A stretch of DNA of 64,000 nucleotides. It comes from Corynebacterium rhinophilum. Its GTDB lineage: Bacteria > Actinomycetota > Actinomycetes > Mycobacteriales > Mycobacteriaceae. The position numbers were made by a program, and so were the translations under genes. A model generated the notes under the pieces. The model was not told the origin of the DNA. It saw only the letters and a list, made by a program, of their open reading frames with translations, and did not search any database. Shown piece by piece: positions 21,008 through 40,368 of this stretch. Each line of letters begins with the position of its first letter. Positions within the stretch are counted from its first letter, which is position 1. The DNA is taken from positions 3,936 through 67,935 of the forward strand of contig NZ_JASPHQ010000015.1 of the NCBI RefSeq assembly GCF_030227225.1, read 5' to 3'.

Positions 21008-22741
21008 TCAGGCGCCCGAGGAGCTCCCCGTCCGACACGCCCACGACTCGGCGTAGCGGCCGCCCTTCGCCAGCAATTCATCGTGCGTGCCCCGTTCTGC
21101 GACCGTCCCGTCCTCCGAAAGCACGACGATGAGGTCGGCATCGCGGACGGTGTGCAGGCGATGGGCGACGACGATCACGGTGCGATCGCCGCGCAACGCC
21201 TCCATCGTGCCGACGATCGCCCGCTCAGTGGCCGCATCCAGCGAGGACGTCGGCTCGTCGAGAAGCACCACCGGGGAATCCTTCAGAAGCGCCCGGGCGA
21301 TGGCGAGGCGCTGCCGCTCGCCTCCCGACAGCAGCGTCCCCTCCTCCCCCACCGGGGTATCCCACCCGGAAGGCAGCAGCTCCACGATGCGGTCCACCCC
21401 GGAACGCCGAGCGGCCTCGCGCAAGCGGTCCCCGTCACCGGGCCCGGAACCGAATTCGGGGTCGGCGAAGACCACGTTGTCCCGCACGGACGCGTCGAAA
21501 AGGAACGTCTCCTGGAACACCGGGGTCACCAGCGAGTTCACGCCGTCGGTGCCGATCCGAGGCAAGGGCACCCCGCCGATGAGGATCTCCCCCGAGTCCG
21601 GATCATGAAAACGCGACAGCAGCCGCATGACCGTCGTCTTGCCCGCCCCCGACGGTCCCACTACAGCAACCAGCGCTCCCTGAGGTGCACGGAAGCTGAC
21701 GCCGTCGAGAACCTTCTTATCCCCGTACCCGAAGCTCACGCCGCGGAACTCCACGTCATGCCCGTTGGGCAGCTCCGGTGCGGTCGGTTCGGGAAGGGCG
21801 GGGATCGCCCGAAGGTCACGCAACGCAGCCAACGTGTTGCGGCCCGCACCGAAACCGCCGGACAACGCTCCCGCCGTGGTGATCGGTCCGGTGAACTGGA
21901 CGACCACGATGAGCATTGGCGCCAACTGCGCCGGCGCCATCCCGCCCGTCGCGGCGACTGCTACGGCGACGATTACCGCCGCCGTGAACACCGCATGGAC
22001 GACCGAACTCAACCGTCCGATGGCCGCCCCCTGCGTCGACGTCGCCTTCGCGAACGTATCGTGTTGGGCCCGGATCGCCTCATCCACCATCGCGTCCGCC
22101 GCCGAACCGTCGCTCGCGGCGCGAATCGCCTGCTGGCAGCGGGTGAACTCGATCAGCCTGCCGGAGACGGCAGCGACGGCGTCAGCATGCGCTTCGTCCG
22201 ACTCCCCGCCGACCCGGCCAATGGCCCGGTAGGCGAAGAAGAGCACCGGCGCCGACGCGACGAGAACCAAACCGACGCGCCAATCCACCGCCAGAATTCC
22301 GAAGGCGATGACGGTCGGCGCAACCACCGCGGCGATGACGGGCCGCAGGATCACGTGCGGCACGGACGCCGCGAACGCGATACCCGACGACGCCATCTCC
22401 GAAAAGCGGCCGGCCGTGGACTTGGTGACGTACCCGAGTGGCAACGTCAGCACGCGTTTGCCCAGGGAACGCAGCAGGGACGACAGCACCGCTGCGGAAT
22501 TCGCCCTGCCGACCATCCCCGCGGCGAGGGACAGCACCGCATGGGCGACCGCGAGGCCGGCGATGACGCCGGTGAAACGCCACGCCGTCGCATCATCTCC
22601 CTCGGCCAGAGCCGACAGCAGCGGCAGCAGCGCGACGAACGCCGCTCCCTGGGCCAGCGAGGCAAGCGCGGCCAACGCAATGAGCCACGCCAGCGTCATT
22701 CTCGAGCGCCGATCCGTCATCGACCACAAGTCCCGAATCAT
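21008..22741 (-). CDS. ABC half-transporter, YbtQ/IrtB-like
   Basis: A 577-residue type IV (exporter-fold) ABC protein and the last gene of the metallophore operon. The transmembrane domain is residues about 1-310. The ATPase follows with Walker A VVGPSGAGKTTVMRL (about 370), signature LLSGGERQRLAIARALL (about 470) and Walker B PVVLLDEPTSSLDAATE, plus the switch His in VAHRLHTVRDAD. It starts by a 4-base ATGA overlap with its partner upstream, so the two form a heterodimer. In yersiniabactin (YbtPQ) and mycobactin (IrtAB) systems, pairs with this fold import the ferric siderophore. Here there is no siderophore-interacting reductase domain. Import is inferred from the cluster type; export cannot be excluded. 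Confidence 0.88.
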   Translation of the reverse strand: MIRDLWSMTDRRSRMTLAWLIALAALASLAQGAAFVALLPLLSALAEGDDATAWRFTGVIAGLAVAHAVLSLAAGMVGRANSAAVLSSLLRSLGKRVLTLPLGYVTKSTAGRFSEMASSGIAFAASVPHVILRPVIAAVVAPTVIAFGILAVDWRVGLVLVASAPVLFFAYRAIGRVGGESDEAHADAVAAVSGRLIEFTRCQQAIRAASDGSAADAMVDEAIRAQHDTFAKATSTQGAAIGRLSSVVHAVFTAAVIVAVAVAATGGMAPAQLAPMLIVVVQFTGPITTAGALSGGFGAGRNTLAALRDLRAIPALPEPTAPELPNGHDVEFRGVSFGYGDKKVLDGVSFRAPQGALVAVVGPSGAGKTTVMRLLSRFHDPDSGEILIGGVPLPRIGTDGVNSLVTPVFQETFLFDASVRDNVVFADPEFGSGPGDGDRLREAARRSGVDRIVELLPSGWDTPVGEEGTLLSGGERQRLAIARALLKDSPVVLLDEPTSSLDAATERAIVGTMEALRGDRTVIVVAHRLHTVRDADLIVVLSEDGTVAERGTHDELLAKGGRYAESWACRTGSSSGA

Positions 22742-24516
22742 CGGTTCCCCGCCTTTTCATCGTCTGATTCAGTGCCCCGCGGAGCGGATGGTTCGTCGTC
22801 GAGCGCGAACGCGCGCCACAAATCCCGGTAGCGGCCACCGCGCGCAAGCAACTCGTCGTGGGTACCCGCCTCCGCGACCGCTCCCCCATCGAGAACGAGG
22901 ATGCGGTCGGCGTTGCGGATCGTGCTCAACCTGTGCGCGATCACAATCACCGTCCGCGAACGGGCCAAACGCTCGATTGCGGACTGGATGAGGGCCTCGG
23001 AAGCCGGATCCGCATAAGCGGTTGCCTCATCGAAGATGAGCACCGGCGCGTCCGTGACGATCGACCTCGCGATGGCCACGCGCTGCGCCTCACCGCCGGA
23101 AAAGGTCACGTCGACGTTGACCACCGAATCCAGACGCTTCGGCAGCGCCGCGATGACCGCATCGAGGTTCGCGAGCTTCGCGGCCGCCATGATTTCGCCG
23201 TCGGTGGCGTCTCTCCTGGCCAGCCGGATGTTCTCCCGCAACGGCAGCGTGAGCAACTGCGGATCTTGGAACACCACCGACACCGAGCGGTGCACGTCGC
23301 GCACGGCGATGTCGCGAAGATCGGCGCCGCCCAGCAGCACCGAGCCTTCAACGGGGTCGTGGAAACGCGCCAACAGCCGGGCGACGGTGGACTTTCCGGA
23401 ACCGGAGGTCCCCACCAGCGCAGTGAGGGTCCCCGGTTCGAACGTCGCGGACATCCCGTCGAGGACCCGCGGCCCATCGCCGTAGGAGAAGACCAGGTTC
23501 CGGACCTCGAGCGCGCCTCCGCGCACGGGCACCGGATCGGCGGGCTCGGCGATTGGCGGCGTGCCCAGCACCTCCGCGATGGACTTCAGGGCGGCAATCC
23601 CCGCGATGATGGGTTCGGAGTTCATGGCCACCCGCACGATCGCCGCGGAGAGTCCAAGGCTGAGAACCAGCCCGGCGACGAGACCCTCCGGTATGCCGCC
23701 CGCGGCGTCCCTCAGAGCGAGGCCGGCCCAGCACACCACTGCGAGGACTGTGATCGGGGACGTCACCACGTCGATGAACCCGAGATAGATGTTCGATTGC
23801 CGGGACCAGGCGGACCACGCGCGGACGAACGACAACGCCGCGGCATCGTAGCGACCCGCGCCCTGGTTGGCGCGTCCGAAGGACTTCATCACCGGGATAC
23901 CGCGCACCAACTCGATGACCGCGGCCGTCACTCCTTCGGAGGCTCGCTCGTAGTCGCGCTGAAGACCGGCTCCGCGCGAAATCATCACGCCCATCAGGGC
24001 GAAGGTGACCAGCACCGGGACGATCGCCACCGCCGCGATCCGCCAATCCACCGCGACGAGCGCGATGAGGGAAAGCAGGGGAACCAGCACCGCCACCACG
24101 GTCTCACCGACGGTGTGGCCCATGAGCTGGTGGACAGCCGCGACGTCCTTCTCAACCGACCCGATGATTCCCGACGAGCGCCGGGCGTCCAGCCAGCCCA
24201 GCGGCAACTTCCGGATTTGGGCGACCAGCCGGCGCCGGAGGTGGAGCTGCAGGTCGTTATCCGCCCGGTGCGAGAGCATGCCGGCGGCGCCGTCCGCGGC
24301 CATGCGCACCGTTGCGGCGACGACGATGACAGCCACGGCCAACCACGTCCGATGCTCCGGGGCCTCCGGGTACGTCATCGCGATGTCGATGATGCCGACC
24401 AGCGAAGCGACGGTAGCCACCGACGACAGGACGGATAACGCGACCACCGCACGCATCCGCGTCCGGATCGGGGCGAGCAGCGACCACGGGCCTACGGTCC
24501 CGTCCACGGCGCTCAC
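22738..24516 (-). CDS. ABC half-transporter, YbtP/IrtA-like
   Basis: A 592-residue exporter-fold ABC protein started at GTG 24516, where GTGA overlaps the methyltransferase stop; longer readings run into that gene. Six helices cover residues about 15-300. The ATPase has Walker A LVGTSGSGKSTVARLLA (about 370), a degenerate signature TFSGGEAQRVAIARSIV and Walker B PVLIFDEATAYADPASE. The ATYADP variant in the D-loop region also occurs in YbtP/IrtA-type proteins. It is the partner of the following gene, and the pair probably handles the metal-loaded product. Confidence 0.88.
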   Translation of the reverse strand: MSAVDGTVGPWSLLAPIRTRMRAVVALSVLSSVATVASLVGIIDIAMTYPEAPEHRTWLAVAVIVVAATVRMAADGAAGMLSHRADNDLQLHLRRRLVAQIRKLPLGWLDARRSSGIIGSVEKDVAAVHQLMGHTVGETVVAVLVPLLSLIALVAVDWRIAAVAIVPVLVTFALMGVMISRGAGLQRDYERASEGVTAAVIELVRGIPVMKSFGRANQGAGRYDAAALSFVRAWSAWSRQSNIYLGFIDVVTSPITVLAVVCWAGLALRDAAGGIPEGLVAGLVLSLGLSAAIVRVAMNSEPIIAGIAALKSIAEVLGTPPIAEPADPVPVRGGALEVRNLVFSYGDGPRVLDGMSATFEPGTLTALVGTSGSGKSTVARLLARFHDPVEGSVLLGGADLRDIAVRDVHRSVSVVFQDPQLLTLPLRENIRLARRDATDGEIMAAAKLANLDAVIAALPKRLDSVVNVDVTFSGGEAQRVAIARSIVTDAPVLIFDEATAYADPASEALIQSAIERLARSRTVIVIAHRLSTIRNADRILVLDGGAVAEAGTHDELLARGGRYRDLWRAFALDDEPSAPRGTESDDEKAGNR

Positions 24517-25307
24517 TTGCCCGCCTCCCCGATCGCGCTTTTCTTCGTGAGAGTGCAGAAGTACACCATGCCGGCGTGTGAGGCTCCGCCCAGCTTCAGC
24601 CCGTTGGCTTCGGCGAGGTCCTCGAGCTCGCTGCCCCGGAACACCCGGTGGCCCATCTTCGCCATGACGGCCATGTCGACCCGCTCGTTCACGTCGGGAT
24701 CCTCGGCGAACGTCTGCACGTAAGCGATGCCGCCGTCGGCGAGCAGACCGGCGACCCTGCCGAGCGCGGCACCCGCATCCTTCATTTGGTGGAGCGCGCC
24801 GCACACCCAGATTTCATCGGTCCTGCCGGGCTCTCCCGCGAGCGGCGCGAGGACATCGGCGACGTGGAATTCCGTCCGGGCCCCGAGCCTTTCGACGGCG
24901 GCGCGTTCGCGGGCGATGCGGATCGCATTGGGCGACAGGTCGTAGCCGACGATGTTCGCCCTGCGATAGCGAGGCTCGGCGGCGAGCATGCGGGCGAGCC
25001 ACCCGGTTCCGCAACCGAGGTCGAGAACCCGGGCCGGCGCATCCGGCCCGGGATCCAGCGCACGGAGCTTCCGATACACGGCGGCGGCGTCCATCGGTTC
25101 ACGCGCATAGCGGCTGAGGAACCTCGGCTGGACCTTGTCCTCGTAGGCCGCGAGGAGTCTGCGGTTGTTCTGGACGATCTGGGCAATCGACTTCATCTGG
25201 TTCTGTCTCCGGGGTGTGTGGGCCGCGTCCACGCGGCGGTTTCGGGTTAGGTGCTCGGGTTCGCGGGCCGTCGTCGGCGGCGCCGCCCCCGTGGACGTGC
25301 CCGTCAT
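24513..25307 (-). CDS. Class I SAM-dependent methyltransferase
   Basis: A 264-residue enzyme with motif I ARVLDLGCGTGWLARMLA (residue about 92), acidic motif II in IVGYDLSPNAIRIARERA, and FHVADVLAPLAG as motif III. ATG 25307 overlaps the upstream permease stop (ATGA); an internal Met (MKSIAQIVQ) about 37 residues later is an alternative start, and the intervening stretch is low-complexity. The NRPS in this operon lacks an in-line methyltransferase domain, so this enzyme may methylate the peptide or a thiazoline carbon or nitrogen in trans. The methyl acceptor cannot be told from sequence. Confidence 0.85.
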   Translation of the reverse strand: MTGTSTGAAPPTTAREPEHLTRNRRVDAAHTPRRQNQMKSIAQIVQNNRRLLAAYEDKVQPRFLSRYAREPMDAAAVYRKLRALDPGPDAPARVLDLGCGTGWLARMLAAEPRYRRANIVGYDLSPNAIRIARERAAVERLGARTEFHVADVLAPLAGEPGRTDEIWVCGALHQMKDAGAALGRVAGLLADGGIAYVQTFAEDPDVNERVDMAVMAKMGHRVFRGSELEDLAEANGLKLGGASHAGMVYFCTLTKKSAIGEAGK

Positions 25308-26041
25308 GCAGACTCCCCCGGCCTCGTTTTCACGGCGATGCCCCACGCCGCGAGCACGGCGATGCCTAAGAACCAGGCCGCGCAGACCACCAGACCCGCA
25401 GCCCCGGTGCCGTTGACGGCCTCGCCTGCCGCGGATACGGGGGTGTGCCCGGCGATTCCGCGCAGGAGGGGACGGAAGTGGTCGGCGGGCATGAGCACCG
25501 TGTTGACGAACATCGCAACGATGATTAACGGGATGAGGGCCACGGACCCCTGGGGGCTGGTGATGGAGAACGCGATGTACGTGCCGGTGCATGCGGCCGC
25601 CGCGGCAACCATCGCCCCGGTCACCGCGATCCTCCACCACCAGGACACCTCCGGGGGGCCGTCGGAAAGCAAGGCGGCCACCGCCGCGACGACGGCCGTC
25701 ATCGCCATGATCCGGATGAACTCGGCAATGATCCGTGCGGCCGACACGGCCGCGTACGGTGACGGCATGGTGATTAACCGCTCGTGGAAGCCATTGCTGC
25801 GTTCAACGAACACGGTGGACGATCCCGTGATGGCCAGGATGAACGCCCACGCCGTCACGACCAGGATGACCGCGTTCCGGAGTTCGAACTCTCCGGTGAG
25901 CTGCCTGACCAGGCCACCGAACATGCGGTTGACGATGAACAGGTACACGAGCGGAGCAATGAACGTCATGAACCAGAAGTCGGGGCGCCGCAGCCAAATG
26001 TGGGCGATGCGCCGCAGATGCACGAAGATGGCGCCGATCAT
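25304..26041 (-). CDS. ABC-2 type permease, second subunit
   Basis: A 245-residue, six-helix ABC-2 permease. It starts at ATG 26041, overlapping the previous stop by ATGA. Typical ABC-2 features are the first helix FWFMTFIAPLVYLFIVNRMFGG, the central RSNGFHERLITMPSPY loop (residues about 85-100), and the last helix near the C-terminus. With the preceding permease and the DrrA-like ATPase it makes a complete three-gene exporter, probably for the newly made metallophore. Confidence 0.85.
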   Translation of the reverse strand: MIGAIFVHLRRIAHIWLRRPDFWFMTFIAPLVYLFIVNRMFGGLVRQLTGEFELRNAVILVVTAWAFILAITGSSTVFVERSNGFHERLITMPSPYAAVSAARIIAEFIRIMAMTAVVAAVAALLSDGPPEVSWWWRIAVTGAMVAAAAACTGTYIAFSITSPQGSVALIPLIIVAMFVNTVLMPADHFRPLLRGIAGHTPVSAAGEAVNGTGAAGLVVCAAWFLGIAVLAAWGIAVKTRPGESA

Positions 26042-26790
26042 GATTCGCTCCTCGAGGTGAACCGGCGGATGAACAGGACGATTCCGGCGACCACCGCGAC
26101 ACCGAGCCACAGGGCTGCCTCTTCCCCGGCGCTATCCGGGAAGGCGTCCGGGGACGCCGCCCTGATCACCTCGATCATCGGCGAAAACGGCATGTGACGT
26201 ACGACGTCGCGCAGGGAGCCGTCCAAAGCGGTCGCCGGAATGAACGCGGTAGAGAACATGAGCAGCAGCATTTCCAGCGCCTGGATCGATGAGGCCGTCG
26301 ACACCGGGGCGGGCACCATCAGGATCACCCCGTCCGTGACCAGGGACAGGACCGCCGCGGCGAGCAGCGACCACAGGACAGTCCACGCGACGTCACCGAC
26401 AGCCATGTCGAGGCCGCAGGCCCACGCGACGACCAGCAGCGCCGCGATCGACGCGGACATCCGCAGCACATCGGTGGCGAGCCTGCCGGCGACATAGCCG
26501 CCTGTGGCCCCGGGCAACACGCGCACGCGGTCAACGAGCCCGGATTCGACGTCCTGTCCCACCGCCATCGCCGACGCCGCGGCGGTGAACATCGCCGCCT
26601 GGAACAGGCAGCCGCCGAGCACGAAACGCAGGTACCCGAAGCCGGATTGCCCCGCCGAGTATCCAAACACCGCGTACAGGCACAGCAGGAAGAGGGGCGG
26701 AACTACGAACATGGAGATCAGCGACGCGGTGTTGCGTCGCAACAGCAGCAGATCCCGACGGAGAAACGCCGCGACCGACGTCGCACTCAT
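26038..26790 (-). CDS. ABC-2 type permease, first subunit
   Basis: A 250-residue permease from ATG 26790, where ATGA overlaps the ATPase stop; an upstream extension of the frame lies antisense to nothing useful and is rejected. It has six hydrophobic segments and the family loop ESGLVDRVRVLPGATGGYVAGR (shown here only as its ends, residues about 80-100). It resembles DrrB-type drug-efflux permeases. The two different permease subunits suggest a heterodimeric channel. Confidence 0.85.
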   Translation of the reverse strand: MSATSVAAFLRRDLLLLRRNTASLISMFVVPPLFLLCLYAVFGYSAGQSGFGYLRFVLGGCLFQAAMFTAAASAMAVGQDVESGLVDRVRVLPGATGGYVAGRLATDVLRMSASIAALLVVAWACGLDMAVGDVAWTVLWSLLAAAVLSLVTDGVILMVPAPVSTASSIQALEMLLLMFSTAFIPATALDGSLRDVVRHMPFSPMIEVIRAASPDAFPDSAGEEAALWLGVAVVAGIVLFIRRFTSRSES

Positions 26791-27839
26791 CGCGCCGCAC
26801 CCCCCGCGTTCATCGATATGAACACCTCGTTGAGGGTGGGTGACGACACGCTCAGCGAATCCGGCGACGCTTCCGAGGCCTCCATCGCCTGCGCCGCCGC
26901 CTCGAGGACCCGCGGTCCGGGGTCGACGTCGAGGGACACCAACTTCCCCGCGACGCGGGCGCCGTCTAGGCACGTTCCCCCGAGGCAGCAGGCGAACGCC
27001 TCCGCCTCGGCGGCGGTGGCGAAGGACACGCGGAGCACGTGCGACCCGAAGTCGCGGCGCAATTCCTCCGGCGTTCCGCTGGCGACGATGCGGCGATCCT
27101 TGAGCAGATGGACGTGGTCGGCCAGCGCCTCCGCCTCTTCCAGGTACTGGGTGGTCAGCACCAGGGTCATTCCGTCGTCGCGCAGTTGCCGGATGAAGCC
27201 CCACAGCTCTTCGCGGCTGACAGGGTCCAGCCCCGTTGTGGGTTCGTCGAGGAACAGCAGCCTGGGCACGACGCACAGCGACGCGGCGATGTCGAGACGG
27301 CGCCGCATGCCACCCGAATAGGCCGACGCCAGCGTCGAGGCACTGTCCACGAGCGAGAATTGCGCGAGCAGTTCCGTCGCGCGGGCGGCCGCGGCGGCGC
27401 GGTCGAGCCCGCGCAGCCGCCCGAAGAACTCCAGGTTCTCCCGGCCGGTGAGGTTCTCGTCGATCGCCGCGAATTGGCCGGTGGTGGCAATGTCGGCGCG
27501 CACGCCCGCCGGGTCCTCTTTCACATCGCGCGAGAAGATGCTCACCTCGCCGGAGTCGGCGGTGATGAGCGTCGACAGGATTCGGATGAGGGTGGTCTTG
27601 CCTGCACCGTTGTGGCCGAGGAACGACACGATCGCCCCGGCGGGCACGGTAAAACTCACGCCGTCGAGCACATGCTTGCGCATCCGGGCGCCGCGCTTTC
27701 CCTTGCGCCCGCCGTCCGGCGGGGCACCTGCCCCGCCTTCGGGCGGGGTGCCCGCATTGCCCGCATTGCCCGCAATCGGGTAGCTCTTCGTGAGGTCGCG
27801 GACGACGATCGCCGCACCTCGTTCAGCTTGATCCGTCAT
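26787..27839 (-). CDS. DrrA-type ABC ATPase
   Basis: A 350-residue ATPase of the daunorubicin-exporter group. Walker A is FLGHNGAGKTTLIRIL (residue about 75), signature YSGGMRRRLDIAASL (about 170) and Walker B LLFLDEPTTGLDP, followed by the Q-loop-type TTGQFAAIDENLTGRENLEF typical of DrrA. A C-terminal regulatory domain follows (about 260-350). An unusual low-complexity insert (GNAGNAGTPPEGGAGAPPDG) splits the first beta strands near residue 22. It overlaps the reductase gene by four bases and drives the two permeases that follow. Confidence 0.9.
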   Translation of the reverse strand: MTDQAERGAAIVVRDLTKSYPIAGNAGNAGTPPEGGAGAPPDGGRKGKRGARMRKHVLDGVSFTVPAGAIVSFLGHNGAGKTTLIRILSTLITADSGEVSIFSRDVKEDPAGVRADIATTGQFAAIDENLTGRENLEFFGRLRGLDRAAAAARATELLAQFSLVDSASTLASAYSGGMRRRLDIAASLCVVPRLLFLDEPTTGLDPVSREELWGFIRQLRDDGMTLVLTTQYLEEAEALADHVHLLKDRRIVASGTPEELRRDFGSHVLRVSFATAAEAEAFACCLGGTCLDGARVAGKLVSLDVDPGPRVLEAAAQAMEASEASPDSLSVSSPTLNEVFISMNAGGAAR

Positions 27840-35000: not shown

Positions 35001-35339
35001 AGCGGGGTCGGCCCCGGCAGCGGCGCCTGCGGCAGATCCGGCATCAGCGCCACCCCGGGCGGCGTCGATGACGGCCGCCAAATCAGCGACCGTGACCCCG
35101 GGGTCCATCGCCGCGTAATCGATGGTCACCCCGTACTCGTCCTCCAGCGCCAGCAGCATCTGGAGGAAAGTCAGGGAGTTCGGGATGTGGTCGCGGAGTT
35201 TCACGTCCGCCGAATCCAGGTGCACGCCGATGGCGTCGGCGATGGACTCCGACAGCCGTTCGGGGGCGACTCGGTCCCCGGTGCGAGCTCCTCCCACGGC
35301 GGTAGATGCGACGGCCGGCGCGATCGTTTCATTGGTCAT
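29007..35339 (-). CDS. NRPS: carrier-Cy-A(Cys)-PCP-Cy-PCP-thioesterase
   Basis: A protein of about 2,110 residues, the metallophore assembly line. Domains: N-terminal carrier (about 25-100, Ser in DHIPNSLTF); Cy1 (about 145-560, NMIVMDAGS in place of DxxxxDxxS; QTAQVCLDIQV; SWDVVDDYFP); adenylation (about 580-1080, FTSGTTGRPKG, YRTGDVG, NGKL); PCP1 (about 1110-1190, GGDSL); Cy2 (about 1235-1670, DMIIGDGAS intact; QTPQVLLDNQV); PCP2 (about 1710-1790, LGYDSLGF); thioesterase (about 1815-2085, GWSLGG, His in GNHYSF). Residues lining the A pocket (D, L, Y from FDLSVYD; N from WNSAP; L, S from VLLSGD; L, I, W from LGGATEGSIW; K) match the Cys code of HMWP2. With one A and two PCPs it should load Cys twice and make two thiazolines, like HMWP2 with a thioesterase added. 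Start: ATG 35345 or, with better spacing from GAGGAG, ATG 35339. Confidence 0.93.
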   Translation of the reverse strand: MTNETIAPAVASTAVGGARTGDRVAPERLSESIADAIGVHLDSADVKLRDHIPNSLTFLQMLLALEDEYGVTIDYAAMDPGVTVADLAAVIDAARGGADAGSAAGAAAGADPAVATGESDDGCAGKNGAGPADAVPLNPIQTAYLLGADEDIELGGQATYIYAESRHDYSLPQVEEAVRVVFGRHDVLFHRLDVDAGVLSPTGACLATVEVVGSGDDVDAAVGEIRRDMRTAARSSNEDGPMVAARLLADAGGCRMFIYFNMIVMDAGSVYLFFDELESLLAGEPPAPASKYGDALAAISARRREGKRAEDLAYWEKKAADLPRRPEFPAAVRGDDDWSTRRLGTVLDAEITAKLGERARRIGVTLSSLVMAVNAAVVCRWLPESALTVNVTVSERSGLAAGTRVMGDFTSSMLIGVDAGRAATIDGLAEAIDLDIREGLSHRGVSGVEVLQRFLRDAANQTQATAPVVFTSYLGGERGSGRSPVIERIYTQTAQVCLDIQVMPASGGMTLSWDVVDDYFPAADTMFGVVAEALDVVAEGGEALPIRHAETEGAVARYNDAAGPIHDDTLVSLVEAAYAATPDAPAVRLAARDISYTYAEVWARAGRIARHLSDSGVGAGDAVIVRYTKHPDDIVNMVGALRAGAAFVPVDAGMPAQRQEYVVEASGASGPILDTGVIDELDQSGVAGVGKPAAAEVCDRAGSAGAHPSLGTAPDDLAYVIFTSGTTGRPKGVRISHRNCINTILDVNRRYGVTSADRIIGLSSLGFDLSVYDVFGAFAAGATVTMVRDERDADEILDVLREERVTLWNSAPALLELALVRAADDDVFPDVRTVLLSGDRIAAGLPARAMDMFPNASINSLGGATEGSIWSIHCPLLRDSLENRIPYGYPLANQGIHVLAPDGVHCPVGVPGEIHISGLGVAQGYAADPERTAAAFGDVPGIGRCYRTGDVGIFNAEGFVEFLGRRDRQVKIAGFRVELGEIESVLERSGLVTASMAAVVESGGRGLLACLYVPADDMTGSRDAVRAELARCLPAYMVPTVLLPVAHLPVTVNGKLDQEEIRRHVGAAGGGATADGEVAGAEAGAAGAAGSVAAPGAIELVSGVFDEILGEAPSTSGADPACGAGESFFRRGGDSLQFQVMMRAIRQKTGVRLRFRDVIADPTIAHIAGLVSEAMRESGAESEAVAEAVSSLDCAGGAGSAAGGARESSASAHGKDPVEQFGDDPHAPFPLTDMQKAYYVGRNSGFELGGVTEHYYIESVTEPGTDIDRLEDALDNLIRRHPMLRVVFTAQATQRILPEVPRYRIAVADYRAADEATVVEAVRRKRDELSHQVFDLGSWPLFHLSAFALPDGRHRLFFSVDMIIGDGASQRIFIDDLDKLYRGTELPPVTGDYRTYVLEMKRREASAVGRGDETLTRTVVEDFPPGNTLPSIGAAADVDVPRMRRLSHTFTAEETALLRERASAADGSVSALLLACYATSLSLWSRGDSVGINITTYNRDPEIADFAGVFGDFTGVILMPVKAAADYDLRWWTAELRDRLLGHMAAGYSGVSLLGAIARHRGLPVGQAIAPFVYTSLLFGEGSAAGDGSGRDAHVLGDVDYAISQTPQVLLDNQVMEVGGRINVAWDFVEQILEPELVEDIFDHYIRSVSGFAGGCPEAAPLSVGQVRRLRLAVGGTSSSGGAIGDGVAGASSAERDRSGSISRIASGDLMGRVREYLTVITGMVRADLGGAEAGADDDLFLLGYDSLGFVNLMQRIQDITGASVPLAEALARPTPRGVAELVGQSTATPTDRRDVDDPGASAADHSLVLLRSGDEARPIFLVHGGFGTVDIYRDLALAIPGGGQVWGVGFAEFERPFPHAIGIGDIAAHYSGRVREVLVDGAAPAIVGWSLGGTIAAEMVLRLADLDPALVFLDSLAPGIAVDVGDFGAESEKGLLSRVVPSIADLPHGTPVARLWAEFGGVDETDGERGARLRALAAAVAPTLLEDLGLSGDRVTATEFNSLRSLIDARTRYRPGGRVREALFVLPDDGEAHNHDQWRDHLVDDLCVAGVAGNHYSFVLGEDAALTGALIGEYIERRRRAPETDDRAADPSSEGIDRSRDRGNEMEND

Positions 35340-35349
35340 CGTCATCTCC

Positions 35350-37122
35350 TCAGAGCAAAGCCTCGAGCTTGCGGCGGAGCTTCTTGCCGTTCGACGCGAC
35401 GGGCAGCTCGTCGACCCACAGAACCCGGGAGACGGGCACCCCGGCGACGCGCATCAGTTCGGTCGTCGCGGACCGGGCCACCGCCTGTTCAGAGATCGGA
35501 GGTTCATCCCCGTCCGATCGCCCGGCACCGGTCGCATCGTCGGCCTTACGATCGGTCGGGGTCCGCCTGGCCAAGAACACGGCGATCTCCTCTTCGCCCG
35601 TGGCTGGGTTGCTCCGGCCGAGAACGGCAACATCGCGGTCAAGCGCATTCTCCAGCACGGCTTCCAAATCAGCCGAATAGTAGTTCCGGCCGTTGACGAA
35701 GATGATGTCCTTCTTCCGGCCGAGGACGAACAACTCGCCGTCGCGGAGAATGCCCATGTCCCCCGTTGCGAACGCCCCGTCATCGGTGAGCTCGTGCTCC
35801 ACGATCCCCTCTGCTGTGATCGCGGCTCGGGTCATCGGAGCGCCGGCGATGTGGATTTCACCGACGGTGCCGTCGCCGAGGACCCCGCCCCCGTCATCGC
35901 GGATGGTCAACGAGATCCCCGGGACGGCCTTGCCCAAGGCGACGAACTCAGCTCCGGACTCGCTCTCGATGTCCTCGAAACGCTGCCCCGTGGCGATGCC
36001 CGTCCGGTCAAGTCGCACCGTGGACAGACCCGAGTAGATGTCCCGGGTCGTAACCAGGAGGCAAGCTTCGGACATTCCGTAGGCGGAGGTCAGGGCATCC
36101 TCCCGGAGGCCCATGGCGGACATCGCCACGAGGAACTTCCGGGCCAATGGAGCGTCGATGGGTTCAGAACCGCTCATCAGCTTCTGGACGTTGGAGAAGT
36201 CGTAACCGTGGTCATCCCCGAGGGGCCGGCGCTCGAGATGGCGCAGGAAATGCTTGAACGCGAAGTTCGGGCACACTGTCACCGTCGGCTGGTGCCTGGT
36301 CACGGCCTCGAACCACCTCGGGGGATCGGCGACCACCTCGGAAACCGGCAGCAACACCTGGTCGTACCCACGAAAAAGGGCGTAGACGTGGAAACCGATC
36401 AGCGAAAGGTTGTGGGTCAAAGGCAGCCACGTGAGCATCTTGTTCTCGTACCGGTGCGCGTGGCGTGGGATCGTCGCGCGCAGACCGTTCAGCACGGACT
36501 CGTTGGTTACGATGACGCCCTTTGGCGATCCCGTGGAGCCGGACGAAAACTGGATGAGGGCTTCGCCGGCCGTCCCACCTCGCACCGGGAACGCGGGGAC
36601 CGCCCCGTCGCCATCCCCGGAATCCACGTCCCCCGCCTGGGAGAAGTCCGATTCAGCATCACCCGGCATCGCCGCACCCGGGTCCGCGGCAGCGTCATTG
36701 ACGATGGACACGTCGAGCAGCCGGTCCTCGCCCACGACCACGGCACCGTTTGCGCCGGTGAGCAGCGTGTGACTGCGTTCGTCGACCAGGATCGGGGCCC
36801 CGGGCATCATGTCCGAGAGCGTCCGCACCCTGTCGACGTCAACCGGGCCCGACACCGGCGGCGCAAGCGCCGGAACCGCGCCGGCGTAGACGCAGCCCCA
36901 GAACGCCCGGATGAGCCCGCGGTTCTCCGAAACTTGGAAGATCACGCGATCACCGGGGCCGATGCCGGCTTCAGCCAACCGAGTCGCAGCCGCCACCGCC
37001 TCCGCGTGGACCCGGCCATACGGGACGAAGACGTCCCGCCGATTCTCGACGAAGGTGATCCCCTTTTTCGTCTCATCGGCCTTGTCCCGAAGCACGTCGC
37101 TGATGGTCCGGATCGTGTTCAT
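35350..37122 (-). CDS. Acyl/aryl-AMP ligase loading the starter unit
   Basis: A 590-residue ANL-superfamily ligase. ATG 37122 has AAAGAGG six bases upstream; the longer frame to 37224 has no such site. The phosphate loop is IQFSSGSTGSPKGVIV (residue about 190). Next comes WLPLTHNLSLIGFHVY, where fatty acyl-AMP ligases usually have WLPLYHDMGLIG and aryl-acid ligases (DhbE, YbtE) have HN. Then come SGSEPID, AYGMSEACLL, and a C-terminal domain with FVLGRKKDIIFVNGRNYY and the catalytic Lys region NGKKLRRK. It is placed directly before the NRPS (5 bases apart), so it probably activates an acid and loads it on the NRPS N-terminal carrier. The sequence is intermediate between fatty-acyl and aryl ligases, so the acid is uncertain. 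Confidence 0.85.
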   Translation of the reverse strand: MNTIRTISDVLRDKADETKKGITFVENRRDVFVPYGRVHAEAVAAATRLAEAGIGPGDRVIFQVSENRGLIRAFWGCVYAGAVPALAPPVSGPVDVDRVRTLSDMMPGAPILVDERSHTLLTGANGAVVVGEDRLLDVSIVNDAAADPGAAMPGDAESDFSQAGDVDSGDGDGAVPAFPVRGGTAGEALIQFSSGSTGSPKGVIVTNESVLNGLRATIPRHAHRYENKMLTWLPLTHNLSLIGFHVYALFRGYDQVLLPVSEVVADPPRWFEAVTRHQPTVTVCPNFAFKHFLRHLERRPLGDDHGYDFSNVQKLMSGSEPIDAPLARKFLVAMSAMGLREDALTSAYGMSEACLLVTTRDIYSGLSTVRLDRTGIATGQRFEDIESESGAEFVALGKAVPGISLTIRDDGGGVLGDGTVGEIHIAGAPMTRAAITAEGIVEHELTDDGAFATGDMGILRDGELFVLGRKKDIIFVNGRNYYSADLEAVLENALDRDVAVLGRSNPATGEEEIAVFLARRTPTDRKADDATGAGRSDGDEPPISEQAVARSATTELMRVAGVPVSRVLWVDELPVASNGKKLRRKLEALL

Positions 37123-37296: not shown

Positions 37297-39654
37297 TCAA
37301 GTCACTGCGGACACCAGGGCGGCGACGAAGGCCGCGGCGGACGCTGCGGCCGCGAACCCGTCACGCACTCGCCAGGGGTGATCGGTGCGGAAGGTGCGCC
37401 GCGGATGACGGCCGAAGTTGCGCATCGCCAGGGTCATGGACAGCTTTTCGGCGCAGCGCACAGCGCTGACGAACAAGGGAAAGGCGATGCACGCGGGCGT
37501 CGTCGCGCGAATGAAGCCGGAGCGGAAAGACTGCCCCGGTCGCATCGAGCGCAATCTAATCGCCCATGTCAGATGGGGGATTTCGCTGCGCAGGAACGCC
37601 GCGATGCTCACCCCGGAAATCGCTATGGTGCACCATGTGTAGGGAACCCGGAGGCGTTGCACCATGGCGTCGAAAAGCTCCTCGACGCGCATGCACGCGG
37701 AGACCAGGACCGTCCCCGCGAACACGGCCGTCAGCAGCAGTCCGTGATGAATGCCGTGGCGGACGGCCTCCGCCGGATCCCCACCGCCGTAGAACTCGGA
37801 GCGCCACCCGAGCAGGCCGAAGAACACCCCGATCAACAGGACGAGGAGGACCTTCCCCGCCGTCGCCCGAACGTCGCGTTCCGCGATCGCAGCGAGTGCG
37901 AGGAACGCAACCCCCGTCAGCGCGAGAACGGCGTCTCCGCCGGAGAGCAGCCCGGCGACGAGAACGAGCATCACCGCCGCGACGATCGTGATGGCGTTCA
38001 ACCCCGCGCGCCTCCGAGCGTCGGATTCACCGGTCCAGGGGCTTTCGTCCCCGGACGTCCGTGCGCCGGCCGCGGGCAGTGCGCGATCCCGCCGGGACGA
38101 CTCCGGGGCAGCCGGCACGTCGGTCGCGGGACCGGACCAGGCGACCTTCCCTTCGGCGACGATGCTCGCCCGATCCGCCCACGTTCGCGCGACACGGCGG
38201 TCGTGGCACGTGAACACAACGGTTCCGCCGGCCCCAGCGTATTCCGCCAGCGCATCCAGCACGGTGCGCGAGCTCGGCGAATCCAGGTGCGCCAACGGCT
38301 CGTCGAGAAGCAGCAAACGGCGATTGGCCGCCACCGCCAGGAAGATGCCCAACCGTCTTTTCTGTCCGCCCGACAGGACGAACGGCGAGACGGGGTCAAG
38401 TGCCCGGGGGCACAGGGTTTCCCGCAGTTTCCGCAGCTCATCGGCGCCGAGTGGCCCGTGCGGGTCCGTGCCGGCCAGCGCGGAGTCGATTTCTGCGGCG
38501 ACGGTCGCGCGGGTGAACTGGTGCTCGGGGTTCTGGAACGCCCACGACGCGAAGGCGTCGGGGGCGCGCCGGGCTGGCTCGCCGTCGATCCGGAGGTCCG
38601 CTCCCGCCTTCATCTGGCCCGACAGCACCGCCAGCAAGGTGGACTTACCGGCTCCGTTGGTGCCGACCAGGGCATGGATCTCGCCCCGTTCCAGTGTCAG
38701 ATCGGCCCCATTCAGGATCCGCTCCCTGCCCCGGGCCACATGGGCTCCGGTCAAGGCCAGCAGTGGAACGGCGTCCGCCTCCGATTCCGGATCGGCGCCA
38801 TCCCCGGCTCCCCGGGGCCTTCGCCGCCGGTCCGGACTGAGACGGTCCGGTGCCCCCGTGCCCGGCGTACTGGCGTCCGGCGCTCCGGCGGTCGCGGCCG
38901 ACGTCGCAATGCCCTTCACCGCGATGCCCTCCGGCGCTCCGTGCGCGGCGACGCTCCCGTCCGCATCGAGGATTGTCACCGTATCGACCCACCCGTCGAA
39001 CGGGCGGAGGTCGTGCTCGATGAGCAGGATGACGCGACCCGGGGCCCGCAAATCACGGATGGCGGCGAACAGCGACCGGCGACCGTCCTCGTCGACGTGG
39101 GCCGCGGGCTCGTCGAAGATCATGACCTCCGGCGCCCTGGCCACCGCACCGGCGATGGCCATCCGCTGGCGTTGCCCACCCGACAAAGCCCACGGATCCT
39201 TCTCCGCGAGCTCTGACAGCCCGAGCTCCGATAGGGCCTCGGCTGATCGCTTGGCGACGATGCCGGCTTCCACGAGGGAAAACTCGAGGGCCATGGACAC
39301 GTCATCGACGACTCGGAGCGTGAGCACCTGCGTCGCCGGGTCTTGCCCGACGAAGGTGACCCGGTCCCCGTCCACGGGGCGTTCGGTGCCGTCGGCATCG
39401 ACGATGTGCACGAATCCGGCATGGTCGATGGGGATGTGCGAGGGGATCAGTCCAGCGATAAGGTGGGCCAGGCTCGTCTTTCCGCATCCCACGGGTCCCG
39501 TGATGGCGTTGATCGTGCCGAAATCGAAGGAGAGATCCACCATGTCGGGTGCCCATCGCCCATCGGCATGCCGCACGCCCGCGCCACTAACCCGTAACCG
39601 GGCCGGGGCCGTCCCGCGTGTCGCACCGGCGCACGCGGGTGCTCCGGCGGTCAC
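37297..39654 (-). CDS. Single-chain ECF transporter: ATPase-ATPase-EcfT fusion (YkoD-YkoC-like)
   Basis: A 785-residue fusion, started at GTG 39654, where GTGA overlaps the S-component stop. ATPase 1 (about 25-250): Walker A ITGPVGCGKTSLAHL, signature LSGGQRQRMAIAGAV, Walker B VMIFDEPAAHVDEDG. A Pro/Gly/Ala-rich linker follows. ATPase 2 (about 280-490): LVGTNGAGKSTLLAVL, LSGGQKRRLGIFLAV, LLLLDEPLAHLDSP. EcfT-like membrane domain (about 530-785): several helices and the coupling motif RSMRPGQSFRSG-like segment. Group I ECF importers use separate A, A' and T proteins; YkoD already fuses the two ATPases, and here T is fused as well. It should partner the YkoE-like protein upstream to import a small ligand. 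Confidence 0.85.
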   Translation of the reverse strand: MTAGAPACAGATRGTAPARLRVSGAGVRHADGRWAPDMVDLSFDFGTINAITGPVGCGKTSLAHLIAGLIPSHIPIDHAGFVHIVDADGTERPVDGDRVTFVGQDPATQVLTLRVVDDVSMALEFSLVEAGIVAKRSAEALSELGLSELAEKDPWALSGGQRQRMAIAGAVARAPEVMIFDEPAAHVDEDGRRSLFAAIRDLRAPGRVILLIEHDLRPFDGWVDTVTILDADGSVAAHGAPEGIAVKGIATSAATAGAPDASTPGTGAPDRLSPDRRRRPRGAGDGADPESEADAVPLLALTGAHVARGRERILNGADLTLERGEIHALVGTNGAGKSTLLAVLSGQMKAGADLRIDGEPARRAPDAFASWAFQNPEHQFTRATVAAEIDSALAGTDPHGPLGADELRKLRETLCPRALDPVSPFVLSGGQKRRLGIFLAVAANRRLLLLDEPLAHLDSPSSRTVLDALAEYAGAGGTVVFTCHDRRVARTWADRASIVAEGKVAWSGPATDVPAAPESSRRDRALPAAGARTSGDESPWTGESDARRRAGLNAITIVAAVMLVLVAGLLSGGDAVLALTGVAFLALAAIAERDVRATAGKVLLVLLIGVFFGLLGWRSEFYGGGDPAEAVRHGIHHGLLLTAVFAGTVLVSACMRVEELFDAMVQRLRVPYTWCTIAISGVSIAAFLRSEIPHLTWAIRLRSMRPGQSFRSGFIRATTPACIAFPLFVSAVRCAEKLSMTLAMRNFGRHPRRTFRTDHPWRVRDGFAAAASAAAFVAALVSAVT

Positions 39655-40292
39655 CGGGTGACCCCGCGGCTGCGAAGCCCCTTTGCGACGGCAAAGCCCA
39701 GGACCAAAAACACCAGGCTCGATGCCAAGGCTACGGCGAAGCTGATCAGGGCCATGGGCGTGGTCAGCGAGTCGACGCCGACTGCGCGCGGGGCCATCGT
39801 TCCCATCAGCGCGGAGAACAACATCGCCGACGCCACGAACTGGGGACGCGTCCACCGCCGGTACAGGGTGACCATGAACGGAAGCTCGATGAGCAATCCT
39901 TCCACAATCAGCGCCCCGATTGCGGCGACGCCGAATGGGGTGGTCGCCGCGGACACGACGCCCATGGCAAAGCATGCGATGAGGCTCGCGCCAGGCTTGC
40001 GGACGACGATGAGGGGAACAACGCACTGCAGGAACCACAACCCGAGCGTCGCCGCGACGAGATAAACGTGGGCGATGCCGGCGAACACCTGCAGGTAAGT
40101 CAGGGGCACGATGATGAGAGACCCCGCGACGCCAATCGCGGCGGCGACGAGCATGTCGCGGGTGGATGGTCGGCCACCCGCTGCGACCGGTGCGACGTGC
40201 ACCAACCGCCCGTCATCCGTCTGCGACGCCACCGCGTCCCCGGCTCCCCCTCCGGAGAGGGGTTCTCCCGTCGATCCACGTTTTCCGTTCAT
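39651..40292 (-). CDS. ECF transporter S component, YkoE-like
   Basis: A 213-residue membrane protein, the first gene of the operon, 58 bases downstream of the DtxR box. After a polar N-terminus of about 45 residues, six helices follow. The core RKPGASLIACFAMGVVSAAT ... LYRRW resembles the YkoE family, whose Bacillus member binds a thiamine pyrimidine precursor. Placement in an iron-regulated metallophore operon suggests that this relative binds a metallophore, a metal complex or a biosynthetic precursor instead. GAGG precedes ATG 40292. Substrate is inference; the family is from motif resemblance. Confidence 0.75.
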   Translation of the reverse strand: MNGKRGSTGEPLSGGGAGDAVASQTDDGRLVHVAPVAAGGRPSTRDMLVAAAIGVAGSLIIVPLTYLQVFAGIAHVYLVAATLGLWFLQCVVPLIVVRKPGASLIACFAMGVVSAATTPFGVAAIGALIVEGLLIELPFMVTLYRRWTRPQFVASAMLFSALMGTMAPRAVGVDSLTTPMALISFAVALASSLVFLVLGFAVAKGLRSRGVTR

Positions 40293-40349
40293 CGTCGCCG
40301 CCTCGCTTCCGTTGCCGATTCCCGATCGGGAACACCACCTGAACCAGTA

Positions 40350-40368
40350 TTAGGTTAGGCAATGCTTA
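40350..40368. promoter_or_regulatory. DtxR/IdeR iron box
   Basis: TTAGGTTAGGCAATGCTTA matches the 19-bp DtxR consensus TTAGGTTAGSCTAACCTAA at 15 of 19 positions, with the first 11 perfect. On the minus strand it overlaps a plausible -10 (TAACCT) with TTGCGT 18 bases upstream as -35. Fe(II)-DtxR bound here would block transcription of the whole ten-gene operon. Confidence 0.75.

What the first reader, a model, noticed from the sequence alone, without database searches (positions are those of the whole stretch)
21008..40368. Complete iron-regulated thiazoline metallophore operon on a GC-rich island
Ten minus-strand genes encode starter ligase, Cys-activating NRPS with two cyclization domains, reductase, methyltransferase, an ABC-2 exporter, a YbtPQ/IrtAB-like pair and an ECF importer, behind one DtxR box. 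Yersiniabactin-like logic (HMWP2, YbtPQ) is recognisable, and clostridial/streptococcal equibactin-type loci share the general idea, but the gene set here is distinct. It has a reductase of a different superfamily, no salicylate synthase, a thioesterase in cis with the HMWP2-like module, and an ECF system. Corynebacterial siderophores I know of use other chemistry, so the product may be new.
Basis: partly seen in the sequence, partly recalled or inferred. Interest (0 to 1): 0.88.

Follow-up and report, generated by a model that had tools for sequence, protein, structure and literature searches.

The report
Mobile iron-scavenger operon, often import-only
A gene cluster that spreads between corynebacteria looks built to make, export and re-import an iron-binding molecule, and in most of the related species found to carry it the synthesis genes have been cut out while the transport genes were kept, as if these bacteria now live off a molecule that others make.

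Summary
Confirmed: an eleven-gene (not ten) minus-strand operon, 21008-40292, behind one DtxR box (40350-40368; 1 match, 0.01 expected), at 68% GC in a 59% GC window. NRPS: ACP-Cy-A(Cys)-PCP-Cy-PCP-TE. Corrections: the starter ligase is nearest to fatty-acyl-AMP ligases, not aryl ligases, so the product is probably an acyl-capped, pyochelin-like acid; and several "distinct" features (no salicylate synthase, saccharopine-dehydrogenase-type enzyme, YbtPQ-like pair) are shared with published equibactin. New: complete copies are 95-97% identical across Corynebacterium species in differing surroundings. Of 242 genus genomes, 18 hold an assessable recent copy: 6 complete, 12 without the NRPS. The 12 show seven different deletions; six of seven spare every transporter gene, and the P, Q and ABC-2 frames stay essentially full-length in 12 of 12. 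Under uniform placement that has probability about 3e-6 (2e-4 for the four deletions that cannot derive from one another). Two further species carry a DtxR-boxed S-ECF-P-Q cassette without biosynthetic genes nearby. Best reading: an iron-repressed metallophore operon repeatedly turned into import-only alleles. The molecule, its metal, uptake and selection on the kept genes are unproven.

The parts
40350..40368 (-). DtxR-type operator in front of the operon
   Evidence: 1 match with up to 3 mismatches to the recalled consensus TWAGGTWAGSCTWACCTWA in 64 kb, 0.01 expected; right half-site found in 19 of 19 loci compared, intact and deleted
39651..40292 (-). ECF transporter S component, 213 aa
   Evidence: PF09819 65 bits, cut-off 25.2; AlphaFold model pLDDT 82, six helices; only PDB match at E<0.001 is 5edl, an ECF S component, TM 0.72/0.77
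37297..39654 (-). ECF energising module, two ATPase domains fused to a CbiQ-like T domain, 785 aa; GTG start overlaps the S stop codon
   Evidence: ABC_tran, two stretches; CbiQ 21.7 bits, below its cut-off of 25; EcfA-type chains among the PDB matches
35350..37122 (-). starter ligase nearest to fatty-acyl-AMP ligases, 590 aa
   Evidence: AMP-binding; best NCBIfam models are acyl-CoA/acyl-AMP ligases incl. FadD32, none over its cut-off; best PDB matches 6ulx/6ulw and McyG, then FAALs and FadD32; salicylate-AMP ligase only 52 bits
29007..35345 (-). NRPS, 2112 aa, ACP-Cy1-A(Cys)-PCP-Cy2-PCP-TE
   Evidence: Pfam domains; residues D-L-Y-N-L-S-L-I-W plus Lys at the specificity positions, carrier serines, TE Ser/Asp/His (13-row alignment); PDB matches to BmdB, PchE, Irp2/HMWP2 Cy
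27836..29014 (-). putative thiazoline (imine) reductase of saccharopine-dehydrogenase fold, 392 aa
   Evidence: PF03435 21.2 bits, under its cut-off of 25.1; AlphaFold model pLDDT 86 matches L-lysine, carboxyspermidine and saccharopine dehydrogenases
26787..27839 (-). ABC-2 exporter ATPase, DrrA-like
   Evidence: TIGR01188 276 bits, cut-off 312
26038..26790 (-). ABC-2 exporter permease 1
   Evidence: PF01061, scanned on the longer ORF 26038-27276
25304..26041 (-). ABC-2 exporter permease 2
   Evidence: PF01061, scanned on the longer ORF 25304-26110
24513..25307 (-). SAM methyltransferase (distant homologues align only from residue 35-38, so the true start may be internal)
   Evidence: PF13489 and others, scanned on the longer ORF; alignment starts
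22738..24516 (-). P: half ABC transporter of IrtA/YbtP type
   Evidence: match to IrtA chains 323 bits and to 6p6i chain A 274 bits; P-glycoprotein-type transporters score higher, up to 381 bits (scanned on the longer ORF)
21008..22741 (-). Q: half ABC transporter of IrtB/YbtQ type
   Evidence: full-length match to IrtB 284 bits and YbtQ 278 bits; other ABC transporters up to 350 bits
21000..40415 (.). unit shared between species at about 95-97% identity in complete copies
28101..37104 (.). stretch within which six of the seven NRPS deletions of other genomes lie (their left breaks 36285-37104, right breaks 28101-29628)

Best explanation
This is an iron-repressed operon for a small thiazoline metallophore. 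The ligase (FAAL type) activates a carboxylic acid as its adenylate and loads it on the N-terminal carrier domain of the NRPS; the single Cys-type A domain charges both PCPs; Cy1 and Cy2 condense and cyclise two cysteines; the saccharopine-dehydrogenase-type enzyme reduces one thiazoline to a thiazolidine, the methyltransferase N-methylates it, and the TE releases a free acid: in effect pyochelin with a different cap (all inferred from domains). The ABC-2 transporter exports or recycles the molecule; the ECF system and the IrtAB/YbtPQ-like pair take up the loaded form. The operon travels between Corynebacterium species and has repeatedly lost ligase plus NRPS by deletion while the transport genes stayed intact, giving import-only alleles that would live on the metallophore made by neighbours. 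Shown: gene content, box, near-identity across species, different deletions, open transporter frames. Inferred: the molecule, the metal, uptake and the social interpretation.
For: Domain and residue evidence. DtxR box, half-site kept in intact and deleted copies. Same gene order at 27-58% protein identity in two further Corynebacterium (G196, G025), without P/Q in G126. Transfer: 97.3% identity to G005 from 20133 to 41799 while the adjoining gap-gene stretch is 76.2%; at least two left and three right contexts, with transposases beside G219's copy. Deletions: 12 of 18 assessable carriers among 242 genomes lack the NRPS; seven different junctions; P and the ABC-2 genes full-length in 12 of 12, Q full in 11 and three residues short in 1; S open in 10 of 10 (start shifted in G056) and ECF in 9 of 10 d1-d6 carriers; uniform placement gives 2.7e-6 for six or more of seven sparing all transporters, 1.8e-4 for the four non-nested deletions. 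d2, d3, d6 and d7 fusion proteins also occur in the protein database. S-ECF-P-Q cassettes without homologues of the biosynthetic genes in 20 kb in G036 and G143, each with an 18-of-19 DtxR box that 0 of 400 control windows reach. Literature: most nasal Corynebacterium species tested made no siderophore and could use staphyloferrins of S. aureus (PMC11296517, passages).
Against: No chemistry or growth data; in the cited nasal survey only C. propinquum among the corynebacterial isolates scored as a siderophore producer, so no carrier is known to make anything. Two features do not fit a simple cheater: the exporter genes are kept as faithfully as the importers, and in allele d7 S and ECF are lost. 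The selection test is weak: pN/pS of transporters within deletion alleles (0.24-0.39; 4 pairs, 3 for S+ECF) equals that in complete copies (0.22-0.37; 2 pairs), but remnants of the broken ligase and reductase genes also give only 0.36, so part of the divergence predates the deletions or was exchanged by recombination. Cy1 carries Asn (12 of 13) or Ala (1 of 13) for the first Asp of DxxxxDxxS, so the first ring is less certain. A FAAL-type ligase need not use a fatty acid. Both half-transporters score higher to P-glycoprotein-type transporters than to IrtAB/YbtPQ.
Confidence: 0.67

Rival explanations
1. The NRPS product is an antibiotic-like or toxic chelator, and the genes kept after NRPS loss are immunity: exporters protect non-producers from neighbours that still make it.
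For: DrrAB-like exporter genes and both ABCB-type half transporters stay open in 12 of 12 NRPS-less copies, and d7 keeps these but lost S and ECF.
Against: S and ECF are kept in six of seven alleles, and importing a poison is not immunity; DtxR-type box; stand-alone DtxR-boxed S-ECF-P-Q cassettes.
Confidence: 0.13
2. The deletions are neutral decay at a deletion-prone stretch; the remaining genes are simply not yet lost.
For: Most junctions lie at short shared sequences; remnants show pN/pS 0.36, so the selection test lacks power; some losses look recent: in G222 the ABC-2, P and Q genes are 100.0% (rounded) identical to complete copies.
Against: Break points differ in all seven alleles yet six of seven spare every transporter gene; transporter frames stay open in alleles that differ by several percent.
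Confidence: 0.14
3. It is an ordinary aryl-capped siderophore of the equibactin/yersiniabactin type; the ligase activates salicylate or another aryl acid taken from outside.
For: Equibactin production in defined medium needs added salicylate (PMC3672683); the ligase's best PDB matches include McyG, which by recollection activates phenylpropanoids; one FAAL-ACP accepts aromatic acids (PMC11837247, passages).
Against: Ligase is nearer FAALs than any aryl-AMP ligase listed; no salicylate synthase over the cut-off in the genome, 3 sub-threshold hits.
Confidence: 0.15
4. The metallophore serves a metal other than iron (for instance Zn or Cu).
For: Without a phenolate the predicted ligand set is weak for Fe(III) (inference); compounds likened to a related siderophore contain zinc (transvalencin A and a uniformide, as told in PMC10080011, passages).
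Against: DtxR-type boxes in front of this operon and of the import-only cassettes.
Confidence: 0.12

Closest known systems
Equibactin locus eqbA-N of Streptococcus equi (and C. kluyveri relatives)
   Same: DtxR-type control, Cys-type A domain with Cy domains, no salicylate synthase, saccharopine-dehydrogenase-family enzyme, YbtPQ-like pair, separate importer, carried on a mobile element (PMC3672683, passages and section 6)
   Different: eqb has a YbtE-like salicylate ligase, two synthetases with three Cy domains, a YbtU-like reductase, PPTase, regulator and type II TE in the locus; here a FAAL-type ligase, one synthetase with two Cy domains, DrrAB-type exporter. Eqb sequences were not compared directly here
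Pyochelin / enantio-pyochelin pathway
   Same: Two cysteines, one ring reduced and N-methylated, TE release as acid (pathway recalled); PchE is among the NRPS matches
   Different: Starter is not salicylate by ligase type; one protein instead of PchE plus PchF; free-standing methyltransferase; reductase of saccharopine-dehydrogenase fold
Yersiniabactin HMWP2 and YbtPQ
   Same: HMWP2-like ArCP-Cy-A-PCP-Cy-PCP order (HMWP2 order recalled); Irp2 Cy match 170 bits, YbtQ match 278 bits
   Different: TE in cis, no HMWP1/PKS in the operon, no YbtE or YbtU type enzyme in the operon, ECF importer
Coelibactin / sorangibactin / mupirochelin clusters
   Same: Saccharopine-dehydrogenase-type enzyme beside an oligothiazoline-type NRPS; replacing it together with two methyltransferase genes abolishes sorangibactin A (PMC10127202); mch also lists ABC transporter genes (PMC10080011); passages read
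   Different: Aryl starters with an oxazoline or oxazole ring, P450 gene, other hosts
S. lugdunensis NRPS with ECF importer
   Same: Equibactin-like NRPS reported together with an ECF transporter, product unknown (PMC12709192, passages)
   Different: Firmicute locus; not compared by sequence here
Siderophore non-producers that keep receptors (e.g. pyoverdine non-producers, 13.7% of Pseudomonas strains)
   Same: Synthesis lost, uptake kept (PMC11734721, passages)
   Different: Here deletions cut within one operon-like unit that moves between species of a Gram-positive genus, and NRPS-less copies outnumber complete ones 12 to 6 among the assessable genomes

Membership tests
Thiazoline NRPS metallophore operon | Cy domains with cyclodehydration residues and a Cys-specific A domain | tested here: met
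   Thr and Asp invariant in both Cy domains; Cys code invariant except one Phe for Tyr, in 13 aligned rows; meaning of the residues recalled
Thiazoline NRPS metallophore operon | Intact DxxxxDxxS motif in each Cy domain | tested here: inconclusive
   Cy2 intact in 13 of 13; Cy1 has Asn (12) or Ala (1) at the first Asp
Thiazoline NRPS metallophore operon | Product that binds a metal | not testable with these tools
   needs LC-MS and metal binding
Equibactin/yersiniabactin (aryl-capped) | Aryl-AMP ligase of YbtE/DhbE type as starter enzyme | tested here: not met
   nearest are FAAL-type enzymes, 122-188 bits, against 52 bits for salicylate-AMP ligase and 55 for a dihydroxybenzoate-AMP ligase
Equibactin/yersiniabactin (aryl-capped) | YbtU/PchG-type thiazoline reductase in the cluster | tested here: not met
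   the operon's only reductase is of saccharopine-dehydrogenase fold; rest of the genome not searched for one
FAAL | Closest to FAALs, with the FAAL-specific insertion | tested here: inconclusive
   nearest by sequence; 44 residues between YGMSE and GKAVPG, no reference enzymes measured; substrate untested; no NCBIfam cut-off reached
ECF transporter | S component plus two ATPase domains and a T domain | tested here: met
   PF09819 over cut-off, two ABC_tran stretches; 5edl as sole fold match at E<0.001; CbiQ match slightly under its cut-off
IrtAB/YbtPQ importers | Heterodimer of ABC-exporter-fold halves acting in import | tested here: inconclusive
   full-length matches to IrtA, IrtB, YbtQ but P-glycoprotein-type transporters score higher; co-location with S-ECF in biosynthesis-free cassettes favours import; direction untested
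Siderophore cheater (non-producer with uptake genes) | Synthesis lost, uptake genes intact | tested here: met
   12 of 18 assessable carriers, with S/ECF lost in the two d7 carriers and ECF split in G075; use of a foreign product not tested
Siderophore cheater (non-producer with uptake genes) | Purifying selection on uptake genes after the loss | tested here: inconclusive
   pN/pS equal to intact copies, but remnants are not neutral either

The most novel reading that the evidence does not exclude
A horizontally mobile metallophore operon circulates among corynebacteria as a public-goods system in two allelic states, complete 'producer' and import-only 'consumer'. Consumer alleles have arisen again and again by deletions that end at the edges of the transport genes, and already outnumber producers among carrier species. 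The compound is an acyl-capped pyochelin-like thiazoline metallophore, taken up by an ECF transporter working with an IrtAB-like pair, a pairing not known to me for siderophore import.
Probability: 0.5. Interest if true: 0.8.

Novelty: new variant of a known kind. Interest (0 to 1): 0.68.

Why it matters
Most nasal corynebacteria tested make no siderophore but consume those of others (PMC11296517, passages). This locus gives a genomic record of how that state can arise: one mobile operon, several separate losses of synthesis, transport kept. It offers natural, nearly identical allele pairs (the five ABC-2, P and Q genes of G222, which lacks the NRPS, are 100.0%, rounded, identical to those of complete copies) for testing producer/consumer dynamics, a probably new metallophore, and a case in which an ECF transporter would import a siderophore.

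Tried and rejected
Rejected: aryl starter as the default. Rejected: that lack of a salicylate synthase, the saccharopine-dehydrogenase-type enzyme or a separate importer sets this apart from equibactin. Considered and not claimed: identity with GCF-50 of the lsaBGC study (PMC10210951; section 8 and passages), an NRPS predicted to make a siderophore that has moved between corynebacteria; its gene list was not visible and the C. jeikeium genome paper is not held, so horizontal spread of this operon may already be partly in print. A mobile-element mechanism was sought and not found: 10 flank ORFs of two genomes (G219, G136) include three transposases but no integrase of a known island type, and I saw no terminal repeat by eye in the boundary sequences of 12 copies. 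Cluster sizes of database proteins were not used as counts of deletion alleles, because 90% clusters may mix intact and fused forms. Row P0001 of alignment A1 is a d2 fusion protein; its odd start was visible when A1 was made, yet A1 was used as it stood; A3 leaves P0001 out. In one search the ECF query was out of frame by my error; one search repeats that comparison with the right frame. Searches for prior reports of import-only corynebacterial siderophore loci: 25 of 100 papers listed; 12 of 56; 15 of 23; 8 of 8; no listed title or abstract start reports one, and papers without the held licences are not searched. Chemistry searches.
Full report
WHAT IS THERE. The window holds an eleven-gene minus-strand operon, in order of transcription: S component 39651-40292, ECF A-A-T fusion 37297-39654, ligase 35350-37122, NRPS 29007-35345, reductase 27836-29014, ABC-2 ATPase 26787-27839 and two permeases 26038-26790 and 25304-26041, methyltransferase 24513-25307, half transporters P 22738-24516 and Q 21008-22741. 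Nine of the ten gene junctions are tight (overlaps, or a gap of 4 bases), eight if the methyltransferase starts internally; ECF-ligase has a gap of 174 bases (coordinates; sequence). A DtxR-type box lies at 40350-40368: one match in 64 kb with up to three mismatches, 0.01 expected (consensus recalled). GC is 68.0% for 21000-40415 and 59.0% for the rest of the window.

THE SYNTHETASE. The NRPS reads ACP-Cy-A-PCP-Cy-PCP-TE. A search of 5.8 billion proteins gave a compact family of 13 (P0023 at 99%, then P0024-P0035 at 68% to 43% identity, all 1898-2124 aa and with a TE), then a drop to other synthetases at 36% or less among the 120 listed of 834. In an alignment of the window protein with P0024-P0035 (13 rows) the positions that I read as the specificity code give D-L-Y-N-L-S-L-I-W plus the lysine, invariant except one Phe for Tyr; this is the cysteine code as I recall it. 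All three carrier serines, the TE triad and the Thr/Asp pair of both Cy domains are invariant. Cy1 has Asn (12 of 13) or Ala (1 of 13) for the first Asp of DxxxxDxxS; Cy2 is canonical. PDB sequence matches are to bacillamide synthetase, PchE and Irp2/HMWP2 cyclisation domains among others.

THE STARTER. The ligase is closest to fatty-acyl-AMP-ligase-type enzymes (NCBIfam models up to 249 bits, none reaching its cut-off; PDB 6ulx 188, McyG 180, FAALs and FadD32 122-149 bits, against 52-55 bits for salicylate- and dihydroxybenzoate-AMP ligases). The genome has three hits to the salicylate synthase model, all far below its cut-off (82-154 against 325 bits). So the cap is probably not salicylate. 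One FAAL-ACP is reported to take aromatic acids too (PMC11837247, passages), hence the acid stays open.

TAILORING. The reductase has no strong family (PF03435 21 bits). Its model (pLDDT 86) matches L-lysine, carboxyspermidine and saccharopine dehydrogenases, enzymes that handle imines (recalled). Proteins of this kind sit in equibactin (EqbM, needed for production; PMC3672683), sorangibactin (replacing SrbE together with two methyltransferase genes abolishes sorangibactin A; PMC10127202) and mupirochelin (MchE; PMC10080011) loci. Here it is the only reductase of the operon. With a free-standing methyltransferase and a TE, the predicted product is acyl-thiazoline-N-methylthiazolidine-carboxylate, a pyochelin with another cap. 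This is inference.

TRANSPORT. The S component belongs to PF09819 (65 bits); its model has six helices and one significant PDB match, 5edl, an ECF S component (TM 0.72/0.77). P and Q align over their length with IrtA/IrtB and with the 6p6i and 8vsi (YbtQ) chains, although P-glycoprotein-type transporters score higher. The ABC-2 set is DrrA/DrrB-like. One PPTase hit and three DtxR-family repressor hits lie elsewhere in the genome.

RELATIVES. All eleven genes in the same order are found in two more Corynebacterium genomes (G196, G025) at 27-54% identity; G126 has the set (34-58%) without P/Q in the 40 kb read (ECF 27-35%). L030 (Propionibacteriaceae MAG) has ligase, NRPS, reductase, methyltransferase, S and ECF in another arrangement; L032 (Acidipropionibacterium jensenii), where only 9 kb lie upstream of the match, shows broken NRPS pieces, reductase, ABC-2 genes and methyltransferase but no S or ECF. 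Upstream sites scoring 14-15 of 19 in G196, G025 and G126 are weak.

MOBILITY. Complete copies in five other genomes are 95.3-97.3% identical to the window's over the unit; deleted copies are 94.5-98.9% identical piece by piece, except a 0.3 kb piece of d7 at 80%. In G005 the stretch 20133-41799 is 97.3% identical while the adjoining gap-gene stretch is 76.2%. Flanks fall into a few contexts, not one per copy: six genomes share the window's left flank (G005, G006, G083, G235, G112, G056); nine of the others share about 0.4 kb of left flank with G136, and G219 shares only the last 0.1 kb by eye; on the right there are at least three contexts. In 11 of 18 other copies identity to the window stops at 40406-40420 and 21000-21005. 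An IS110 transposase lies at 40573-41850 here and three other transposases left of G219's copy. That several of these species come from human skin is recalled, not from a call.

THE DELETIONS. The genus search covered 242 genomes with the NRPS, S and the reductase. Six hold the complete recent copy (G000, G005, G006, G219, G238, G239). Twelve hold a copy without the NRPS core and most of the ligase (G136, G188, G083, G235, G112, G073, G159, G010, G056, G075, G220, G222). Two cannot be judged and are left out: G223 (3.3 kb contig with the NRPS start) and G086 (reductase end at a contig edge, identity not shown). L026, labelled Brevibacterium sp. HMSC07C04, has the G136 allele, 100.0% (rounded) identical in five genes, and is not counted. 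Seven deletions were mapped in window coordinates: d1 37060-29628 (G136), d2 36956-28758 (G075, G159), d3 36285-28101 (G083, G235, G112, G056), d4 36876-28127 (G073), d5 37104-29176 (G010), d6 36894-29135 with further losses (G188), d7 40140-28436 (G220, G222). The junctions differ; most lie at short shared sequences by eye. d1, d3, d4 and d6 cannot derive from one another; d5 contains d1, d2 contains d6, and d7 contains d1, d2, d5 and d6, so at least four and probably seven events occurred. G010, G056, G083, G136 and G222 are assemblies of one to three contigs, so assembly error is unlikely for d1, d3, d5 and d7.

WHAT IS KEPT. P and the three ABC-2 genes match the whole query in one frame in 12 of 12 deleted copies; Q in 11, and to residue 574 of 577 in G112. 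Among the ten d1-d6 carriers S is open in 10 (start in another frame in G056) and ECF in 9 (split at residue 205 in G075). The methyltransferase is broken in G188 and has internal losses in G010 and G112; the reductase is whole in 2 of 12 (G136, G010). The DtxR right half-site is kept in all, with one later base changed in G188. Six of seven deletions touch no transporter gene; d7 removes most of S and all of ECF. Placing deletions of the observed lengths uniformly in 21000-40415 gives 2.7e-6 for six or more of seven sparing all seven transporter genes (4.2e-6 if S must survive for detection), and 1.8e-4 for d1, d3, d4 and d6 alone. pN/pS in pairs within deletion alleles (S+ECF 0.39, P+Q 0.24, ABC-2 0.24, methyltransferase 0.30) matches complete copies (0.37, 0.23, 0.22, 0.35), but the remnants of ligase and reductase also give 0.36 (complete 0.26), so the test has little power (per-gene values, where the d7 reductase remnant alone gave 0.84). 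The ABC-2, P and Q genes of G222 (d7) are 100.0% (rounded) identical to those of the complete copies G238/G239, those of G220 (same deletion) 99.3%, so some losses are recent or were moved by recombination. Proteins with the d2, d3, d6 and d7 fusions, and a possible eighth junction (P0004), appear among the database homologues.

IMPORT-ONLY CASSETTES. G036 and G143 carry S-ECF-P-Q at 28-43% identity with no homologue of ligase, NRPS, reductase, ABC-2 genes or methyltransferase in the 20 kb read and DtxR boxes matching 18 of 19 positions just upstream; 0 of 400 other windows of the same loci reach that score, best 14. G113 and G231 have S-ECF without P/Q, and sites of 14 of 19 that control windows reach as well (5 and 7 of 400). 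The ECF system and the IrtAB-like pair thus recur, in two genomes, as a DtxR-boxed module apart from synthesis, which favours import for both. Weaker S hits in G205 and G124 were not followed.

MECHANISM AND DOUBTS. The simplest account is an iron-repressed metallophore operon of which many carriers keep only transport. Retention of the exporter fits recycling or detoxification of an imported molecule (inference; recalled from mycobacteria) but also fits immunity to a toxic product. Loss of the ECF importer in d7 shows that it is not always kept. In the nasal survey that I cite, C. propinquum was the only corynebacterium that scored as a producer (PMC11296517, passages), so no carrier is known to make the compound. 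The metal, the molecule and uptake are unproven.

RELATION TO WHAT IS KNOWN. Equibactin is the nearest described system in logic; it fails here as a family label on the ligase type and the YbtU-type reductase. Horizontal spread of an NRPS siderophore cluster among corynebacteria is in print for GCF-50 (PMC10210951), whose identity with this operon I could not check. NRPS clusters of unknown product in skin and respiratory corynebacteria are in print (PMC10683109; PMC12188740; PMC12542688; passages). Siderophore non-producers with receptors are a known kind (PMC11734721, passages). I found no report of repeated import-only conversion of this operon in the listings.

Noticed in passing
40573-41850 (+): IS110-family transposase directly upstream of the operon; it lies within the high-identity stretch shared with G005 and G006.
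   Followed up: partly
20173-20781 (+): Peptidyl-tRNA hydrolase gene just beyond the operon lies inside the 97% identical stretch shared with G005 although a nearby core gene is 76% identical: it may travel with the island in this context.
   Followed up: no
NRPS 29007-35345, residue 263: Asn (12 of 13) or Ala (1 of 13) in place of the first Asp of the Cy1 DxxxxDxxS motif across the family; meaning for ring formation unknown.
   Followed up: partly
G032, G081, G082, G086, G183, G222, G227, G238 (table): A different NRPS in an open frame of 3629 aa scores almost identically in these eight genomes, suggesting a second recently spread synthetase; possibly the GCF-50 of the lsaBGC paper (guess).
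   Followed up: no
P0004: Database protein joining ligase residues 1-81 to the reductase from its residue 1 through an unassigned stretch: a possible eighth NRPS deletion.
   Followed up: partly
G126 (L045, L046): Diverged operon without the P/Q pair in the 40 kb read, so P/Q are not always part of the set.
   Followed up: partly
L026: Record labelled Brevibacterium sp. HMSC07C04 carries a copy nearly identical to that of Corynebacterium genome G136; mislabelling, contamination or very recent transfer.
   Followed up: no
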